Assembly (NCBI GenBank): GCA_902802805.1
Contig: CADCNE010000009.1
Span: 1 to 47,157, forward strand
Direction: 5' to 3'
DNA from: an uncultured Eubacteriales bacterium
GTDB lineage: Bacteria > Bacillota > Clostridia > Christensenellales > CAG-138
DNA length: 47,157 bases
This document shows positions 4,313 through 41,866 of this stretch, piece by piece; position 1 is the first letter of the stretch; each line of letters starts with the position of its first letter. Under the pieces are notes generated by a model. That model did no database searches, had not been told where the DNA came from, and saw only the letters and a program-made list of their open reading frames with translations. Made by a program: the position numbers and the translations under genes.

Positions 4313-5665
4313 TTACTCGAATTTTCTAACGATATCTTTGAACACTCTGCCCCGCTGCTCGTAGTTCTCGAACATGCCCCAGCTGGCGCAGGCGGGAGAA
4401 AGGAGGACGTTGTCCCCGGGCTCGGCCAGCTCCCGGCACTTCTCCAGGGTCTCCCGGAAGGTGTCGCACCGATAGCAGATGTTGTCGAAGCCGTGGCGCT
4501 TGGCGGTCTCCAATATCTCGTCCGCCGTCTGGCCCAGGACCACGCAAGCCTTCACGTGGCTGCCGGGCAGGGCGTCGAAGACCTCCTCGAAGCCCGTGTG
4601 CTTGTCGTAGCCGCCCAGGATGAGGACGGTGGGCCGGTCCATGGCCTCGATGGCCTTGACGGTGGAATCGGGGTTGGTGCCCTTGCTGTCGTTGATGTAG
4701 CGGACGCCGGAGCGCTCGCAGACGAACTCGATCCGATGCTCCACCCCCTGGAAGGTGCGCAGGGTCTCCTTAATTACGGCCTCGTCCACTCCCTGGCTCA
4801 GGGCCAGCAGGGCGCAGAGCATGGCGTTCTCCAGATTGTGGCCGCCGGGGATGTAGATCTCCTTCCGGTCCATGAAGGGCTCATCCTTGCCCGAAAAGCG
4901 GAGCATGATCATGTCCCCGTCCATGTACATGCCCTCGGGCACCTTCTCCTTGCGGGAGAAGTAGAGGACGTGAGCGGGGGTGAGCTTCGCAAAATCCCGG
5001 ACGATGGGATCGTCCCAGTTCAGCACGGCGAAGTCGTCGGCGGTCTGGTTGTCGAAGATCTTGGCCTTGGCGGCGATGTACTTATCCATGGACCCGAACC
5101 GGTCGATGTGGTCCGGGGTGATGTTGCACACGCCCGCGGCCTTGGCGTGGAAGCGCACGTTCCCCTCGAGCTGCAATGCGGCGGTCTCAGCTACGATCAC
5201 GTCCCCGGGCTTCGTCTCCATGGCGTGGGCGGAGATGGCCACGCCGATGTTCCCCAGCACGAAGGTCTTCCGGCCCGAGGCCTTGAAGATCTCGCCGGTG
5301 AGGGTGGTGCAGGTGGTCTTTCCGTTGGTACCGGTGATGCAGACGAAGTCGGCCTTCGAATACCGGTAGCCAAGCTCGATCTCGCTGATGACCTCGATGC
5401 CCCGCCGTTGGGCCTCCACGATGAAGGGCCTAAAGAAGGGGATGATGGGGCTGGGGATCAACAGGTCCACCCCGTCCAGGAGGTCCATGGGATCGTCCCC
5501 CAGGCGCACCTCGTAGGCGATGCCGGAAAGAGCGTCGAACAGACCCTTGATCTCCGGCTTCATGTCGTTGATGATGACCCGATAGCCGTTTTCATAGAGG
5601 AGCCGGGCGGCGGCGATGCCGCTCTTGGCCATACCCACGATGAGCGCCGTTTTTTGTTGTGCCAT
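4313..5665 (-). CDS. murD: UDP-N-acetylmuramoyl-L-alanine--D-glutamate ligase MurD
   Basis: Cytoplasmic ATP-dependent ligase adding D-Glu to UDP-MurNAc-L-Ala. At 450 residues it has family length. The N-terminal Rossmann-like domain begins ALIVGMAKSGIAAARLLYENG. The central domain has the P-loop CITGTNGKTTCTTLTGEIF, and ITPDHIDRFGSMDKYIAAKAKIF carries the region of the carbamylated lysine. The C-terminal domain has GVRYINDSKGTNPDSTVKAI, typical of MurD, and LLSPACASWGMFENYEQRG near the end. It sits between mraY (15-nt gap) and ftsW (3-nt gap). Confidence 0.96.
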   Translation of the reverse strand: MAQQKTALIVGMAKSGIAAARLLYENGYRVIINDMKPEIKGLFDALSGIAYEVRLGDDPMDLLDGVDLLIPSPIIPFFRPFIVEAQRRGIEVISEIELGYRYSKADFVCITGTNGKTTCTTLTGEIFKASGRKTFVLGNIGVAISAHAMETKPGDVIVAETAALQLEGNVRFHAKAAGVCNITPDHIDRFGSMDKYIAAKAKIFDNQTADDFAVLNWDDPIVRDFAKLTPAHVLYFSRKEKVPEGMYMDGDMIMLRFSGKDEPFMDRKEIYIPGGHNLENAMLCALLALSQGVDEAVIKETLRTFQGVEHRIEFVCERSGVRYINDSKGTNPDSTVKAIEAMDRPTVLILGGYDKHTGFEEVFDALPGSHVKACVVLGQTADEILETAKRHGFDNICYRCDTFRETLEKCRELAEPGDNVLLSPACASWGMFENYEQRGRVFKDIVRKFE

Positions 5666-37685: not shown

Positions 37686-37714
37686 CCGCCCTTTCCGCCG
37701 GAGGGCGGGTTTTT
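37686..37714 (+). terminator. Intrinsic terminator after the PlsC-like gene
   Basis: CCGCCCT (37686-37692) pairs with AGGGCGG (37702-37708), loop of 9 nt, followed by GTTTTT. It begins 1 nt after the stop codon. Confidence 0.85.
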
Positions 37715-37784: not shown

Positions 37785-37897
37785 TGTCATCCTGAGCCGC
37801 AGGCGAAGGATCTCAGAACGTAACAGCGTATACCGCGTAAAAGCAGCTCGTTTCGGCCAGCAACGTTCAGAGATCCTTCGCTTCGCTCAGGATGACA
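37785..37897. repeat. MITE-like inverted repeat, TGTCATCCTGAG family
   Basis: Terminal inverted repeats of 36-37 bp: the left arm starts TGTCATCCTGAG (37785-37821), and the right arm (37862-37897) is its near-exact complement, ending CTCAGGATGACA. Only a few positions differ, mainly in the CGCAGG / CGAAGC segment. About 40 bp lies between. The arm sequence with GAAGGATCT is one I recognise as recurring between genes in many bacterial genomes. No transposase is present. Confidence 0.85.
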
Positions 37898-37977: not shown

Positions 37978-38008
37978 TTGACTTTCCCCCTGGTGGAAGC
38001 TGTATAAA
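37978..38008 (+). promoter_or_regulatory. MerR-type promoter with 19-bp spacer and dyad operator
   Basis: -35 TTGACT (37978-37983) and -10 TATAAA (38003-38008) are separated by 19 bp, the overlong spacer typical of MerR-family control. The spacer holds the dyad CTTTCCCCCTGGTGGAAGC, resembling known MerR-family operators. It lies just ahead of the merR-like gene, so autoregulation is expected. Confidence 0.8.
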
Positions 38009-38033
38009 GGAGACGAAAGGACGGGCGACGGCC

Positions 38034-38678
38034 ATGAAGATACAACAGGTGGAGGAGCTGGTGGGCATCTCCAAGAAGAACATCCGCTTCTACGAGGCCG
38101 AGGGGCTCCTGAGCCCGGGCCGGGCCGAGAACGGCTATCGCTCCTACGGCCAGGGGGACGTGCTGCGGCTGAAGCAGATAAAGCTCCTCCGGAAGCTGGC
38201 CGTGCCCATCGAGGACATCCGCGGTCTGCTGCAGGGCGAGGGGTCGCTGGAGACCTGCCTCACGAAGCAGCTCAGGGAATACGACCGGCAGCGGGAAAGC
38301 CTCTCCGCCATGGAGGGCATGACCCGGGAGCTTTTGAGCCGCCCCGGCCTCACCCTGGAGGGATTGGACGCGGAGGGGTGCCTCGACAAGATCGAGCGCC
38401 TCGAAAAGGAGGGACAGAATTTTATGGACGTGTCGAAGAAGGACGTGCACCGGAAGAAGACCTCGGGGGCCGTGCTGGGGGCGGCCATCGTCATCGCCCT
38501 GCTGCTGCCCGTGGTGTTCGGGATACTGTGGGCCAACGGGCAGTCGCCCCTGCCCATCGGGATACTGCTTCTGATCGCGGGCGTGCCCGTGATCGTTATC
38601 ATCTGCATCGTAGCGGTGCTCATTCAACGCATCAAGGAGATCAAAGGAGGAGAAGAAGATGAAGCTGCTCAGTATTGA
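38034..38678 (+). CDS. Membrane-anchored MerR family transcriptional regulator
   Basis: The ATG at 38034 (MKIQQVEELVGISKKNIRFY) begins exactly at the MerR HTH and gives 214 residues; earlier in-frame codons lie upstream of the promoter. The winged HTH runs about 1-70, with YEAEGLLSPGRAENGYRSYG as the wing region. A helical linker to about 125 follows, then two membrane helices (about 144-167 and 173-198) and a short acidic tail. No metal-binding cysteine cluster is seen. Most MerR regulators are soluble, so the anchor is the notable feature. It overlaps the YbjQ gene by 20 bp. Confidence 0.88.
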   Translation: MKIQQVEELVGISKKNIRFYEAEGLLSPGRAENGYRSYGQGDVLRLKQIKLLRKLAVPIEDIRGLLQGEGSLETCLTKQLREYDRQRESLSAMEGMTRELLSRPGLTLEGLDAEGCLDKIERLEKEGQNFMDVSKKDVHRKKTSGAVLGAAIVIALLLPVVFGILWANGQSPLPIGILLLIAGVPVIVIICIVAVLIQRIKEIKGGEEDEAAQY

Positions 38679-39000
38679 CAACATTCCGGGCCAGCAGATC
38701 GAGGCCCTGGGCATGGTGAAGGGAGCCGTGGTGCAGACCAAGCACTTCGGCAAGGACTTTATGGCGGGCCTCAAGACCCTGGTGGGCGGCGAGATCGCGG
38801 CCTACACGGAGATGCTCAACGAGGCCCGGCAGATCGCCGTGAAGCGCATGGTGGACGAAGCCAAGACCCTGGACGCCGACGCCATCGTGGGCATCCGCTA
38901 CGGGTCCGCCCAGGTCATGCAGGGGGCCGCCGAGGTGCTGGCCTACGGCACGGCGGTGAAGATCGTGGGCCCCGCTAAGGAAGGAACGGTGCGGCTGTGA
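38659..39000 (+). CDS. YbjQ/UPF0145 family protein
   Basis: A 113-residue member of the YbjQ (DUF74, heavy-metal-binding-like) family, which forms pentameric rings in known structures; the function is not established. The pattern is IPGQQIEALGMVKGAVVQTK, EMLNEARQIAVKRMVDEAKT, LDADAIVGIRYGSAQV and AYGTAVKIV. AGGAG lies upstream. It overlaps the MerR gene by 20 bp and the protease gene by 4 bp, so the three products are probably made together. Confidence 0.88.
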   Translation: MKLLSIDNIPGQQIEALGMVKGAVVQTKHFGKDFMAGLKTLVGGEIAAYTEMLNEARQIAVKRMVDEAKTLDADAIVGIRYGSAQVMQGAAEVLAYGTAVKIVGPAKEGTVRL

Positions 39001-39785
39001 GCGTGCCGGCCCTGTCCATGGCGCTCATGGCCGCGGCCATGGTGTTCGCCTTCGGGGCGCCCTTCGTGCTCCTGTTCCATTATAAGAAGCGGGGCGCCCA
39101 GGTGCTGCCCTTCTTCATCGGCTGCGCCGTGTTCGTCGTCTTCGCCCTCATATTGGAGGCCCTGGTCCACAACATCGTGCTCAAGGGCCTGCCCGTGGGG
39201 GAGAAGATCATGGGGAACACCCTGCTCTACGCCCTCTACGGCGGGCTTATGGCGGGCCTGTTTGAAGAAACGGGCCGGTTCCTGGCCTTCAAGACCGTGC
39301 TGAAAAGCAGGCTGGACAACGATAGGAACGCCCTCATGTACGGGGCGGGCCACGGCGGCATCGAGTGCATCCTGATGCTGGGCTTCGCCTACGCCAGCAA
39401 CCTCATCATGTCCGTGATGATCAACGCGGGCCTGGCGGACAAGCTGACCGCGGGGCTCTCCGGGGACATGCTGGCCGAGATCGAGGCCGTCTTCGGCACC
39501 CTGACCGGCACCCCGCCCACCACCTACCTTCTGGCCGTGGTGGAGCGGTGCGCGGCCCTCGTCACCCACATCTCCCTCTCCGTGCTGGTGTGGTTCGCCG
39601 CCAAGAAGCCCGGGAAGGGCTGGCTCTTCCCCCTGGCGATCCTCCTGCACGCCATCCTGGACGGCCTCACGGTGATCCTGGCCGCCCGCCTTCCCGTCGT
39701 CGCGGTGGAGGGCTGCCTGGTGGTCATAGCGGCGGTGCTCGCCGGTATCGCCTGCATCGTCTGGAAGCGGAACGCGGAAGTGTAA
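38997..39785 (+). CDS. YhfC family intramembrane metalloprotease-like protein
   Basis: A 262-residue polytopic membrane protein with about seven helices, starting at GTG inside the YbjQ stop. GLFEETGRFLAFK with the Glu pair (90-91), and MYGAGHGGIECILML (His119, Glu123) match the YhfC branch of glutamic/CPBP-type intramembrane proteases. A later FPLAILLHAILDGLTVIL gives another conserved His and Asp. The family assignment is from motifs. Acting on the neighbouring membrane-anchored MerR protein is a hypothesis. Confidence 0.83.
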   Translation: MSVPALSMALMAAAMVFAFGAPFVLLFHYKKRGAQVLPFFIGCAVFVVFALILEALVHNIVLKGLPVGEKIMGNTLLYALYGGLMAGLFEETGRFLAFKTVLKSRLDNDRNALMYGAGHGGIECILMLGFAYASNLIMSVMINAGLADKLTAGLSGDMLAEIEAVFGTLTGTPPTTYLLAVVERCAALVTHISLSVLVWFAAKKPGKGWLFPLAILLHAILDGLTVILAARLPVVAVEGCLVVIAAVLAGIACIVWKRNAEV

Positions 39786-39800
39786 ATACGTACCATAACG

Positions 39801-39835
39801 CAGGAGCGGAGGGGTTTCCCTCCGCTCCTGTATTT
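39801..39835. terminator. Bidirectional intrinsic terminator
   Basis: CAGGAGCGGAGGG (39801-39813) pairs perfectly with 39818-39830, loop GTTT, followed by TATTT. It ends the MerR-YbjQ-YhfC operon and may also serve the convergent NlpC/P60 gene. Confidence 0.88.
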
Positions 39836-39862: not shown

Positions 39863-41866
39863 TCAGCCCCAGATCCTGTACGCCATCAGGAAGTGCTCGG
39901 TCCAGTAGTTGGTGGACACGCTGGAACGGATGACCACGCAGCCGGCGGAGCTGCTGGCGTCGATCATGCGGCCGCCGCCCATGTAGATGCCCACGTGGCC
40001 CGTGGAGTCGCTGCTGCCGGAGAACACCAGGATGTCGCCCCGCTTGAGGTCGCTCATGCCCTCGATCCGGGTGTACTTGGAGCAGGTGCGCCAGCGGACG
40101 CTGGTCATGTAGCTGGGGTTGGCCCCCGCCTGCTTCAAACACCAGTAGACGAAGCCGGAGCAGTCGAAGCTGTCGGGCCCCTTGGCGCCCCGCACGTAGG
40201 GGCAGCCCACCCGGCTCTCCGCCGCGGCGATCATACCCTCGATGCCGCTGCCGTAGTTGCCCACGGGCTTCGATGCCTGGGGCGTGGCCGTGGGCTCCGC
40301 CGTGGCCTCAGGCTCGGGTTCGGGCGTGTTTTCCGCCGGCGCAGGGGTGTCCTGGGGGATGGACTCGGGGGTGGTCTCCACGTAGATGATGTCGGGATTG
40401 GGCACCCAATCTGTCTCCTGGGGCACGGGCGTGTAGGTTTCCGGCGCCTCCGTGGGCTTGGGCGTCGCTTTGGCCGTCGCCTTGGCCGTGGACTTGGTCT
40501 TCGACGTGGCCTTGGCCGTGGCTTTGGCGGTGGCCTTCGCGGTAGCCTTCGCTGTGGTCTTGGCGGTAGCTTTCGCCGTAGCCTTGGCGGTGGCCTTCGC
40601 CGTGGGTTTCGCCGTAGGCTTGGGCGTCGGCTTGGGCGTGGGTTTGGGCGTGGGCGAGGGCGTGGGCGTGGGGGCGGGGACCACCGAGTCGGACAGGAGC
40701 TTTCGGATGGTCTCCGATCCCATTTGGCCGTCCACGGCGAGGCCGTTGCGGCGCTGGAACTCCTCCACCGCCTTGACGGTGGGCTCCCGATAGTTGCCCG
40801 AGACCTGGTCAAACGTCAGATAGCCGTATTTATACAGCAGCCGCTGCAGGGCGGTCACGTCCTTGCCGCGGGCTCCCAGGGTGAAGGCGTGGGCGGACAC
40901 GTCCTCCTCGTTGAGCATCTCGATGGTGCCGAGGCTCAGGTTCCCGTCGGCCACCAGGCCGTTGTCTTCCTGAAAGCGGGAGACGGCCAGGGCCGTGAGC
41001 TTGCCGTAGACCCCGTCAGGCTGTATCACCAGATACCCCAGCTTCAGCAGCCGCTGCTGCCAGAAGAGGATCTGATCGGACTTGTCCCCGATGCGCATGT
41101 AGTTGGCCACGGGCTCGTCCCCGAAGAGGGTCTCCAGGATGGCGGAGTCCACGGAAGTGCCGTCCCCCAGCCGGTTGAGGGTCCGGAACCGGGCCACGGC
41201 CTGGGCGGTCTCCTCCCCGAAATAGCCGTCCGCCGGGATCGTCAGATACCCCAGCTCGATGAGCCGCTCCTGGATGCTCTCCACCTCCATGCCCTCGTCT
41301 CCGGGGAGCACGGCGTAGAGGGCGGCGTCCTCGGCCTTCAGCTTCAAAAAGGTGTCCTTGTCGCAGAGGCCCGTCACGGGCAGACCGTTGCGCCGCTGGA
41401 AGACGGAGACGGCGTTGGCGACGCCTGCGCCGTACAGGTCCTCCGGCTGCTCGAATTCAAGGTATTCGAGCGTCATCAGCCGGATCTGGATGTCCAGCAC
41501 GATGGGCGAACGCATGCCCGTGCCGATCACGTCCCCGTTCAGGGGGTTCAGGGTGGGCGTGGGCGTGGGCACCGCCGTGGGCACCGGCGAAGGCGTGGGC
41601 GAGGGCAGGGCCGTGGGCGCGGGGGTCGCTGTGACCGGCGCGGCGGTCCGATCCTGGATGGGCGGCGTGGGCGTCACCCGGACCACGTGCTCGTTGCGGT
41701 TGAGGTCCGGCTGCTCCACCGCCACGGCCAGGAAGGAGTCGTGCAGATACTCCCGGACGTACAGCCCCCCGGCCAGGATCAGGCCCAGCACCAAAATAGA
41801 CAGGAGCCAGACCAGCACCGCGGTGGTCTTGTTCCGTCCCTTCTTTTGCTGTGGCTGCTTCTCCAT
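39863..41866 (-). CDS. NlpC/P60 peptidoglycan hydrolase with four peptidoglycan-binding repeats
   Basis: A 667-residue surface enzyme. A basic N terminus and one membrane helix (about 15-39, TAVLVWLLSILVLGLILAGG) anchor it. A Pro/Thr linker follows, then about four PG_binding_1-type repeats (DIQIRLMTLEYLEF; ESIQERLIELGYLTI; LFWQQRLLKLGYLVI; TALQRLLYKYGYLTF). A Lys/Ala/Thr tract comes next, then a second acidic Pro-rich linker. The C-terminal NlpC/P60 domain has catalytic Cys569 in FDCSGFVYW and His624 in GHVGIYMGGG, so endopeptidase activity on stem peptides is likely. A -10-like TACAAT lies at 41894-41899 (minus) and AGGGGAGG-type purines precede the ATG. Confidence 0.92.
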   Translation of the reverse strand: MEKQPQQKKGRNKTTAVLVWLLSILVLGLILAGGLYVREYLHDSFLAVAVEQPDLNRNEHVVRVTPTPPIQDRTAAPVTATPAPTALPSPTPSPVPTAVPTPTPTLNPLNGDVIGTGMRSPIVLDIQIRLMTLEYLEFEQPEDLYGAGVANAVSVFQRRNGLPVTGLCDKDTFLKLKAEDAALYAVLPGDEGMEVESIQERLIELGYLTIPADGYFGEETAQAVARFRTLNRLGDGTSVDSAILETLFGDEPVANYMRIGDKSDQILFWQQRLLKLGYLVIQPDGVYGKLTALAVSRFQEDNGLVADGNLSLGTIEMLNEEDVSAHAFTLGARGKDVTALQRLLYKYGYLTFDQVSGNYREPTVKAVEEFQRRNGLAVDGQMGSETIRKLLSDSVVPAPTPTPSPTPKPTPKPTPKPTAKPTAKATAKATAKATAKTTAKATAKATAKATAKATSKTKSTAKATAKATPKPTEAPETYTPVPQETDWVPNPDIIYVETTPESIPQDTPAPAENTPEPEPEATAEPTATPQASKPVGNYGSGIEGMIAAAESRVGCPYVRGAKGPDSFDCSGFVYWCLKQAGANPSYMTSVRWRTCSKYTRIEGMSDLKRGDILVFSGSSDSTGHVGIYMGGGRMIDASSSAGCVVIRSSVSTNYWTEHFLMAYRIWG
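40452..40676 (-). repeat. Low-complexity coding tract (Lys-Ala-Thr-Ala and Pro-Thr-Pro-Lys repeats)
   Basis: About 12-nt period repeats coding KATAKATA-like units and then PTPKPTPK units inside the NlpC/P60 gene. Synonymous changes between units show it is not a fresh slippage product. The product is a long basic, extended spacer. Confidence 0.8.

What the first reader, a model, noticed from the sequence alone, without database searches (positions are those of the whole stretch)
37978..39785. Membrane-anchored MerR + YbjQ + YhfC intramembrane protease operon: possible proteolytically released transcription factor
The MerR-type regulator ends with two membrane helices and is translationally coupled (20-bp and 4-bp overlaps) to YbjQ and to a YhfC-family protein with EETGR and GAGHGGIE motifs of glutamic intramembrane proteases. 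Established: intramembrane proteases release anchored regulators in other systems (site-2 protease, rhomboid). Inference: YhfC may cut the MerR anchor, perhaps gated by the YbjQ ring, releasing it to act on its own 19-bp-spacer promoter. I know no described system of this make-up.
Basis: partly seen in the sequence, partly recalled or inferred. Interest (0 to 1): 0.78.

Follow-up and report, generated by a model that had tools for sequence, protein, structure and literature searches.

The report
Membrane-anchored MerR regulator with protease-like partner
A bacterium carries a small self-regulated operon in which a DNA-binding regulator is fixed in the cell membrane and made together with a YbjQ protein and a protease-like membrane protein (YhfC); the grouping recurs in other bacteria, so it looks like a real but untested membrane-signalling unit.

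Summary
Between two terminator-like stems lies one operon: merR (38034-38678, HTH plus two C-terminal TM helices), ybjQ (20-nt overlap), yhfC (4-nt overlap), behind a MerR-type promoter with a 19-bp spacer. Relatives show more. (1) The promoter is present in 16 of 17 operons compared (window included); in two Treponema operons it precedes yhfC, the first gene there. (2) The anchor is a module that also exists as a separate 2-TM protein followed by ybjQ (34 of 35 loci), so YbjQ belongs to the anchor. (3) Where the module carries the HTH, a protease-like membrane protein follows ybjQ in 13 of 13 testable loci (11 YhfC; 2 Rce1-like, in genomes without a YhfC match); where it stands alone, 0 of 35. 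(4) A second, not detectably related anchored MerR (2 TM + zinc ribbon) also neighbours YhfC, but also ABC transporters, and occurs in genomes without YhfC. The linkage is real and recurrent; cleavage is unproven. I favour a membrane-bound one-component regulator inducing a membrane effector (0.45) over proteolytic release (0.35). YbjQ reads better as the anchor's partner than as a gate.

The parts
37686..37708 (+). Terminator-like stem after the upstream acyltransferase-like gene
37978..38008 (+). MerR-type promoter/operator TTGACT-19 bp-TATAAA with a TTCC..CC.GG..GGAA dyad
   Evidence: same spacing in 16 of 17 type-I operons compared; genus scan
38034..38678 (+). merR: HTH (res 1-68), dimerisation helix, juxtamembrane linker, two TM helices (type-I anchored MerR)
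   Evidence: residues 1 to about 113 match solved MerR-family structures
38346..38468 (+). Juxtamembrane linker (res 105-145), with G..F.D before TM1
   Evidence: 42% mean pairwise identity against 29% for TM1 and 25% for TM2, 8 sequences
38472..38528 (+). TM helix 1 (res 147-165)
   Evidence: hydropathy
38562..38618 (+). TM helix 2 (res 177-195)
   Evidence: hydropathy
38643..38652 (+). Likely ybjQ ribosome-binding site AAAGGAGGAG inside the merR 3' end; with the overlap it can explain the conserved tail KGGEEDEAAQY
   Evidence: sequence; tail identical in 8 of 8 close relatives, window included
38659..39000 (+). ybjQ (PF01906; UPF0145), overlaps merR by 20 nt
   Evidence: solved relatives 1y2i, 2gtc, 1vr4, five chains each
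38997..39785 (+). yhfC (PF10086), 262 aa, 6 predicted TM helices, overlaps ybjQ by 4 nt (GTGA)
39264..39278 (+). YhfC EETGR motif (E90, E91, R94)
   Evidence: E90, E91, R94 54 of 54
39342..39365 (+). YhfC GAGHGGIE motif (H119, E123)
   Evidence: H119, E123 54 of 54; G116 52 of 54
39648..39662 (+). YhfC HAILD motif (H218, D222)
   Evidence: H218 54 of 54; D222 52 of 54 (N in two)
39800..39831 (+). Terminator-like stem (14 pairs) after the operon

Best explanation
A membrane-bound one-component regulator with its own effector operon. SHOWN by sequence: a MerR-type HTH and dimerisation helix are joined by a conserved linker to a 2-TM module; the module and YbjQ form a gene pair that also occurs without the HTH; the operon has a conserved MerR-type promoter; in all 13 testable HTH-bearing loci a protease-like membrane protein (YhfC, or an Rce1-like protein) follows ybjQ. 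INFERRED: the MerR dimer stays at the membrane with YbjQ docked on the cytoplasmic side of its helices; a membrane-borne signal (for example a membrane-active compound or lipid/protein damage) changes the helix bundle; the HTH then untwists the 19-bp-spacer promoter and switches on the operon; YhfC is the induced effector, an intramembrane enzyme acting on membrane substrates, and may feed back on the regulator.
For: MerR-type promoter in 16 of 17 type-I operons compared; in L085 and L068 it precedes yhfC because yhfC is the first gene. Second operators upstream of yhbY in 5 of 12 genus genomes suggest action in trans. Partner swapping: type-I MerR with YhfC or Rce1-like; type-II MerR with YhfC, or with an ABC transporter (L190, L191), or with neither, the pattern expected of regulator plus target gene. 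Of 9 HTH-bearing type-II loci read in the class sample, 5 lie in genomes without a YhfC match (four re-tested), so an anchored MerR does not need it. 98 of 138 YhfC rows have no anchored MerR nearby, so YhfC has work of its own. Membrane-bound regulators are a described class (PMC10269533, passages only; that BcrR and CadC act without cleavage is recalled).
Against: No signal, localisation or expression data. For type I the partner is protease-like in 13 of 13 and never an ABC transporter, which is more selective than a free choice of effector. The linker is better conserved than the TM helices, which also fits a processing site. The yhbY sites do not look like an immunity regulon.
Confidence: 0.45

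Rival explanations
1. Regulated intramembrane proteolysis: YhfC, or the Rce1-like protein in its place, cuts the MerR anchor near the cytoplasmic face, possibly in the conserved linker, and frees the HTH dimer to act on the operon and on distant sites such as yhbY.
For: HTH-bearing anchor with a protease-like protein in 13 of 13 testable loci, HTH-less anchor in 0 of 35. Two different families fill the same slot, and neither Rce1-like genome has a YhfC match. Putative catalytic residues intact. Two anchored-MerR modules without detectable homology (hhalign probability 2.0) and one anchored Cro/CI-type HTH protein (L181) neighbour YhfC. In the two Rce1-like operons the linker differs (FMNI and a 3-residue gap where the YhfC operons have F.D and no gap). 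Gene overlaps suggest coupled synthesis.
Against: No cleavage data. Anchored type-II MerR exists in genomes without a YhfC match. Most YhfC rows have no anchored MerR nearby. TM helices are not conserved. The 13 loci come from 3 genera, and a regulator sitting next to its target gene would give the same contrast. The linker difference may be one event (two genomes of one genus).
Confidence: 0.35
2. Stable membrane complex without proteolysis: the 2-TM module, the YbjQ ring and YhfC form one assembly (YhfC as sensor or scaffold, like members of the CPBP group without protease role), and the HTH is an add-on that reads its state.
For: L109: YhfC and the 2-TM module lie in one open frame directly before ybjQ, with no HTH. 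ybjQ follows the stand-alone module in 34 of 35 loci and overlaps it in 33. CPBP-like proteins thought not to be proteases are described (LnsB, SpdC; PMC7387801 passages).
Against: L109 is a single metagenome-assembled case, and an internal AAGGAGG plus TTG at 4778 could start the module separately. Putative catalytic residues are kept in YhfC, while that paper reports divergence in LnsB. The 35 stand-alone loci show no YhfC within the flanks read.
Confidence: 0.12
3. Chance or hitch-hiking neighbours without functional link.
For: YhfC has diverse neighbours, and its type-I copies fall in 6 separate groups of a quick tree.
Against: 21 of 30 YhfC loci read in the family (the best 30 places; 40 genomes had a match) have an anchored MerR adjacent; gene order differs in Treponema but the set persists, with the promoter in two of three; replacement by an Rce1-like protein.
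Confidence: 0.03

Closest known systems
Transmembrane transcription regulators (one-component; ToxR, TcpP, CadC; BcrR recalled)
   Same: HTH plus TM helices in one protein; some have an associated partner protein (PMC10269533 passages)
   Different: MerR-type HTH at the N-terminus with a C-terminal 2-TM module and a 19-bp-spacer promoter; YbjQ and YhfC partners. In the passages found by 'MerR' in that paper the only match was the author name Merrell; its tables were not seen
PrsW/RsiW and other regulated intramembrane proteolysis (recalled)
   Same: A membrane protease acts on an anchored regulator; DUF2324 is called another PrsW-like peptidase in PMC3482391 (one passage; that DUF2324 is YhfC is recalled)
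   Different: Here the anchored protein would itself be the DNA-binding factor; cleavage is untested
YhfC family PF10086
   Same: 158.1 bits; putative catalytic residues kept
   Different: In my set mostly without an anchored MerR nearby (98 of 138 rows)
MerR family metal/drug regulators (CueR, CadR, BrlR, EcmrR)
   Same: Residues 1 to about 113 match solved structures; 19-bp-spacer promoter
   Different: The part after the dimerisation helix is a linker and two TM helices; best PDB stretches end by residue 127 (36 sequences listed)
YbjQ / UPF0145 family PF01906
   Same: 122.5 bits; three solved relatives, five chains each
   Different: Paired with a 2-TM membrane module, here fused to an HTH; I know of no earlier report of this pairing (25 papers hold the names, 20 listed, none opened for this)

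Membership tests
MerR family | N-terminal winged HTH above Pfam cut-off | tested here: met
   PF13411 67.3 bits against cut-off 21.6
MerR family | Dimerisation helix after the HTH | tested here: met
   Profile matches to CueR, CadR, BrlR reach residues 95-127; by sequence only
MerR family | 19/20-bp-spacer promoter with dyad | tested here: met
   16 of 17 type-I operons compared; L096 missed within 130 nt
MerR family | Soluble C-terminal effector-binding part | tested here: not met
   Linker plus two predicted TM helices instead; the HTH-level membership stands
YhfC family (PF10086) | Match over curated cut-off | tested here: met
   158.1 bits, cut-off 24.2
CPBP/PrsW-type intramembrane protease | Conserved EExxR, H, HxxxD residues | tested here: met
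   E90, E91, R94, H119, H218 in 54 of 54; D222 in 52 of 54; that these are the catalytic motifs is recalled
CPBP/PrsW-type intramembrane protease | Detectable homology to, or same fold as, Rce1 | tested here: inconclusive
   hhalign against a 2-row Rce1-like alignment: probability 0.2; no significant PDB relative by sequence; structure prediction switched off
CPBP/PrsW-type intramembrane protease | Proteolytic activity | not testable with these tools
   bench assay needed
Regulated intramembrane proteolysis system | Protease always present with the anchored factor | tested here: inconclusive
   Type I: 13 of 13 testable loci; type II: YhfC adjacent in 2 of 9 HTH-bearing loci read in the class sample, and 5 of the 9 genomes have no YhfC match
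Regulated intramembrane proteolysis system | Cleavage releases an active fragment | not testable with these tools
   bench assay needed
Transmembrane transcription regulator | DNA-binding domain and TM helices in one chain | tested here: met
   helices by hydropathy only
Transmembrane transcription regulator | Works from the membrane | not testable with these tools
   bench assay needed
YbjQ family (PF01906) | Match over cut-off | tested here: met
   122.5 bits, cut-off 23

The most novel reading that the evidence does not exclude
A new type of regulated intramembrane proteolysis in which the DNA-binding protein itself, a MerR-family dimer, is tethered by a YbjQ-associated two-helix module and is released by a CPBP-superfamily intramembrane protease made from the same autoregulated operon; lineages have swapped one protease family (YhfC) for another (Rce1-like).
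Probability: 0.33. Interest if true: 0.82.

Novelty: new variant of a known kind. Interest (0 to 1): 0.57.

Why it matters
MerR regulators are, to my knowledge, normally soluble; a membrane-anchored branch with a shared promoter logic would extend the family to membrane signals. It also gives three poorly known things a testable setting: YbjQ (following a 2-TM membrane module in 34 of 35 stand-alone loci), YhfC, and the 2-TM module. The swap of YhfC for an Rce1-like protein makes the question 'is the enzyme the output or the activator?' directly testable with one mutant series.

Tried and rejected
Chance adjacency: rejected. Metal sensing by conserved cysteines: the dimer-helix Cys of the window protein is absent in the Treponema and f97 relatives, so not supported. 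Conserved tail KGGEEDEAAQY as a functional peptide: can be explained by the ybjQ ribosome-binding site and start codons; RIKEI just before it is conserved too (74%). Homology of the MerR anchor to the stand-alone 2-TM protein resting only on that tail: tested by trimming; hhalign probability 98.4, then 96.9 without the 11-residue tail, then 59.4 without RIKEI as well; trimmed-set controls gave 0.2, 0.5 and 1.3, and A4 against A5 gave 2.0. So much of the signal beyond the tail comes from RIKEI. Type-I and type-II anchors being homologous: not detected. Plasmid-borne copies of MerR: no match at 1e-12. Anti-phage defence: only an HTH match to mad1, E 8e-9. L145 has a rhomboid-family gene ending 156 nt before the called start of a stand-alone 2-TM gene; single case, taken as chance. 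The palindrome at 37803-37881: two patterns that I wrote did not even match the palindrome itself, so they test nothing. YhfC tree: quick, simple model, one of 139 loci dropped for a missing or short match; label changes type I 5, type II 9, both together 14, not compared with shuffles; type I forms 6 and type II 12 pure groups. Neighbours of YhfC with Pfam names (bPH_5, SMR, GNAT, DUF3108) were not followed.
Full report
OBSERVATION. The region reads as one operon. A terminator-like stem (37686-37708) follows the preceding acyltransferase-like gene and a 14-pair stem (39800-39831) follows yhfC. Between them lie merR 38034-38678, ybjQ 38659-39000 and yhfC 38997-39785, overlapping by 20 and 4 nt. 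Pfam confirms the three families (PF13411, PF01906, PF10086). Hydropathy gives two C-terminal TM helices in MerR and six in YhfC. A PF13411 search finds no second MerR gene in the assembly in which the window lies (1 match; 93.5% complete, 5.8% contaminated).

TYPE-I OPERONS ELSEWHERE. With the C-terminal half as query (A4), 28 of 103 genomes of the family had a match; 12 are HTH-bearing (E at most 2.5e-47), 15 are stand-alone 2-TM proteins and one (L160) is a weak hit inside a long frame without ybjQ. Of the 12, 11 are followed by ybjQ and yhfC; the twelfth (G048) is cut 89 bases after merR by the contig end. In G045 (L143) yhfC is split into two frames. With the full-length profile A8 in 297 genomes of the order, 8 matched at 1e-25: four of the genus (own included), two of family f97 (G484, G451) and two HTH-plus-RDD proteins (G553, G457) that lack the 2-TM module and have YhfC elsewhere in the genome. 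In 299 genomes of the phylum only the own genome and one MerR with a different spacer and two TM helices (L246) matched. In 5 genomes of f97 the same two matched. L032-L035 have the contig lengths of family genomes already counted; new are a Lachnospiraceae locus (L108, merR-ybjQ-yhfC) and three Treponema loci (L068, L085, L096) with the order yhfC-merR-ybjQ.

REPLACEMENT OF YhfC. In G484 and G451 merR-2TM and ybjQ are followed by a protein of PF02517 (Rce1-like type II CAAX endopeptidase; 61.8 and 55.3 bits), 31 nt after ybjQ in one and overlapping by 4 nt in the other, by the first possible start. Both carry EExxxR, H and HxxxN. Neither genome (92% and 95% complete) has a PF10086 match. These two genomes are of one genus.

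THE ANCHOR IS A YbjQ-PAIRED MODULE. A2 searched in 291 genomes of the class hit 21: the own genome and 20 stand-alone proteins of 71-134 aa (as called), each followed by ybjQ, overlapping in 19 (L132 has a gap). With the 15 of the family this makes 35; ybjQ is seen in 34, overlapping in 33, and the remaining one (L154) ends near a contig edge. Profile comparison supports homology with the MerR anchor (98.4; 96.9 after removing the 11-residue tail; 59.4 without RIKEI too; controls 0.2-2.0). None of the 35 loci shows a YhfC-profile match. Five frames of at least 110 aa with four or more TM helices occur in them, none with EExx(x)R; four of the five were checked in Pfam (TrkH twice, Gate, ABC2), the L154 frame was not. 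The loci are 1.7-3.3 kb long and some end at contig edges, so more distant genes would be missed. HTH-bearing 13 of 13 against stand-alone 0 of 35 gives Fisher p about 5e-12, but the 13 come from three genera and are not independent. L109 (found through YhfC, so not counted) has yhfC and the module in one frame, then ybjQ, and no HTH; an internal ribosome-binding site and TTG leave open whether it is a true fusion.

PROMOTER. In 16 of 17 type-I operons compared a TTGAC-19-TAnnnT/TATA box lies within 130 nt of the first gene; L135 was left out because its contig starts too close, and L096 has only a weaker box further up. In L085 and L068 it precedes yhfC, the first gene there. A genus scan (12 genomes, up to 3 mismatches) found the operator in 11, with no match to the reversed pattern; in 5 (G040, G043, G044, G047, G048) a second copy lies just upstream of yhbY (CRS1_YhbY by Pfam in L231; the other four by the same start), a ribosome-assembly gene (function recalled); G042 has a 3-mismatch match elsewhere. 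The own genome has one site. G038 has neither site nor type-I MerR.

TYPE-II ANCHORED MerR. A different protein, MerR HTH plus 2 TM plus a zinc-ribbon-like C-terminus, neighbours yhfC in 11 of 30 family loci (type I: 10; neither: 9; the best 30 places were read, 40 genomes had a match) and in 2 of 30 loci read of the class set (L165, L167), which also carry a separate 2-TM-ribbon protein. Hydropathy flags only one of the two helices in several of them (for example L026, L029, L031, L165, L167). Type-I and type-II anchors are not detectably homologous (2.0). In a class search with A5, 40 of 291 genomes matched and 30 loci were given; 9 are HTH-bearing (L190-L197, L206). Of these 2 adjoin yhfC (L192, L193), 2 adjoin an ABC transporter (L190, L191), 4 adjoin neither (L194-L197), and L206 has no YhfC match but its other neighbours were not read. 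G204, G334, G346 and G278 have no YhfC match, and G212 is not among the hits. Of the other 21 loci two ribbon proteins were checked in Pfam (L204, and L181/L200); both have a Cro/CI-type HTH, and the second lies 9 nt before a yhfC.

YhfC. In 54 aligned YhfC sequences E90, E91, R94, H119, E123, E183, R184 and H218 are the same whether or not an anchored MerR is adjacent (12 with, 42 counted as without). Of 138 rows in the tree set (some genomes counted twice because two searches found them), 18 adjoin type I, 19 type II, 2 ribbon-type proteins, 1 the bare module and 98 none of these within the flanks read. L088, counted as ribbon-type, starts near a contig end and may be a cut type-II MerR. Sequence comparison did not link YhfC to the Rce1-like proteins (0.2, two-row alignment), so their common superfamily rests on the literature: DUF2324 is called PrsW-like in PMC3482391 (one passage; that DUF2324 is YhfC is recalled), a pneumococcal review lists a YhfC family intramembrane metalloprotease (PMC7939560, passages), and Pfam names PF10086 so. 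CPBP-like proteins thought not to be proteases exist (LnsB, SpdC; PMC7387801, passages).

MECHANISM. Across eight diverse type-I MerR proteins mean pairwise identity is 68% in the HTH, 42% in the juxtamembrane linker, 74% in RIKEI, but 29% and 25% in the two helices. So DNA binding, the linker and the cytoplasmic end of TM2 look constrained, the helices hardly beyond hydrophobicity. In the two Rce1-like operons the linker differs from that of the YhfC operons (FMNI and a 3-residue gap). This fits either a processing site or a signalling hinge. The tie to a protease-like protein favours release (0.35); the swap of YhfC for ABC transporters and its absence in type-II genomes, and the many YhfC genes without an anchored MerR, favour a regulator plus effector (0.45). 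ABC exporters and CPBP (Abi) proteins are both known as immunity factors against membrane-active peptides, and BcrR is a membrane-bound regulator of such an exporter (recalled, no call); a sensor of membrane-active compounds is therefore my leading guess for the signal.

NOVELTY. Searches for YhfC with intramembrane, MerR with YbjQ, MerR with membrane-bound factor terms, MerR with CPBP, UPF0145/YbjQ, and yhfC with B. subtilis returned no paper whose listing (title, start of abstract) describes such a system; only open-licence PMC papers are held, lists were partly cut, and most hits were not opened. The census of transmembrane regulators (PMC10269533) was seen only as passages; its tables were not seen and may list MerR proteins. 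I rate it a new variant of a known kind.

Noticed in passing
L231, L225, L232, L235, L236 (genus relatives): MerR-type operator just upstream of yhbY in 5 of 12 genus genomes, as if the regulator also controls a ribosome-assembly gene.
   Followed up: partly
L113-L132, L145-L159: A small 2-TM protein followed by ybjQ (34 of 35 loci) is a recurring gene pair in Clostridia relatives; no function known to me.
   Followed up: partly
L181/L200, L204: Cro/CI-type HTH proteins with the same 2-TM plus zinc-ribbon end as the type-II MerR; L181 adjoins yhfC.
   Followed up: partly
L244, L245: Close relatives of the window's HTH fused to an RDD membrane domain; their genomes have YhfC elsewhere.
   Followed up: partly
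L246: MerR protein with a long spacer of unknown kind and two C-terminal TM helices, in a genome without a YhfC match.
   Followed up: no
37803-37881: Imperfect palindrome (19-nt arms, 95% complementary) in the intergenic region before the operon, resembling a dispersed intergenic repeat (recalled); not tested properly.
   Followed up: partly
L182, L186: Small proteins next to yhfC; the L182 one matches the bacterial PH domain bPH_5, the similar-looking L186 one has no Pfam match.
   Followed up: no
39863-41866 (-): NlpC/P60 protein with peptidoglycan-binding repeats and a Lys/Ala/Thr/Pro-rich low-complexity stretch, convergent with the operon.
   Followed up: no
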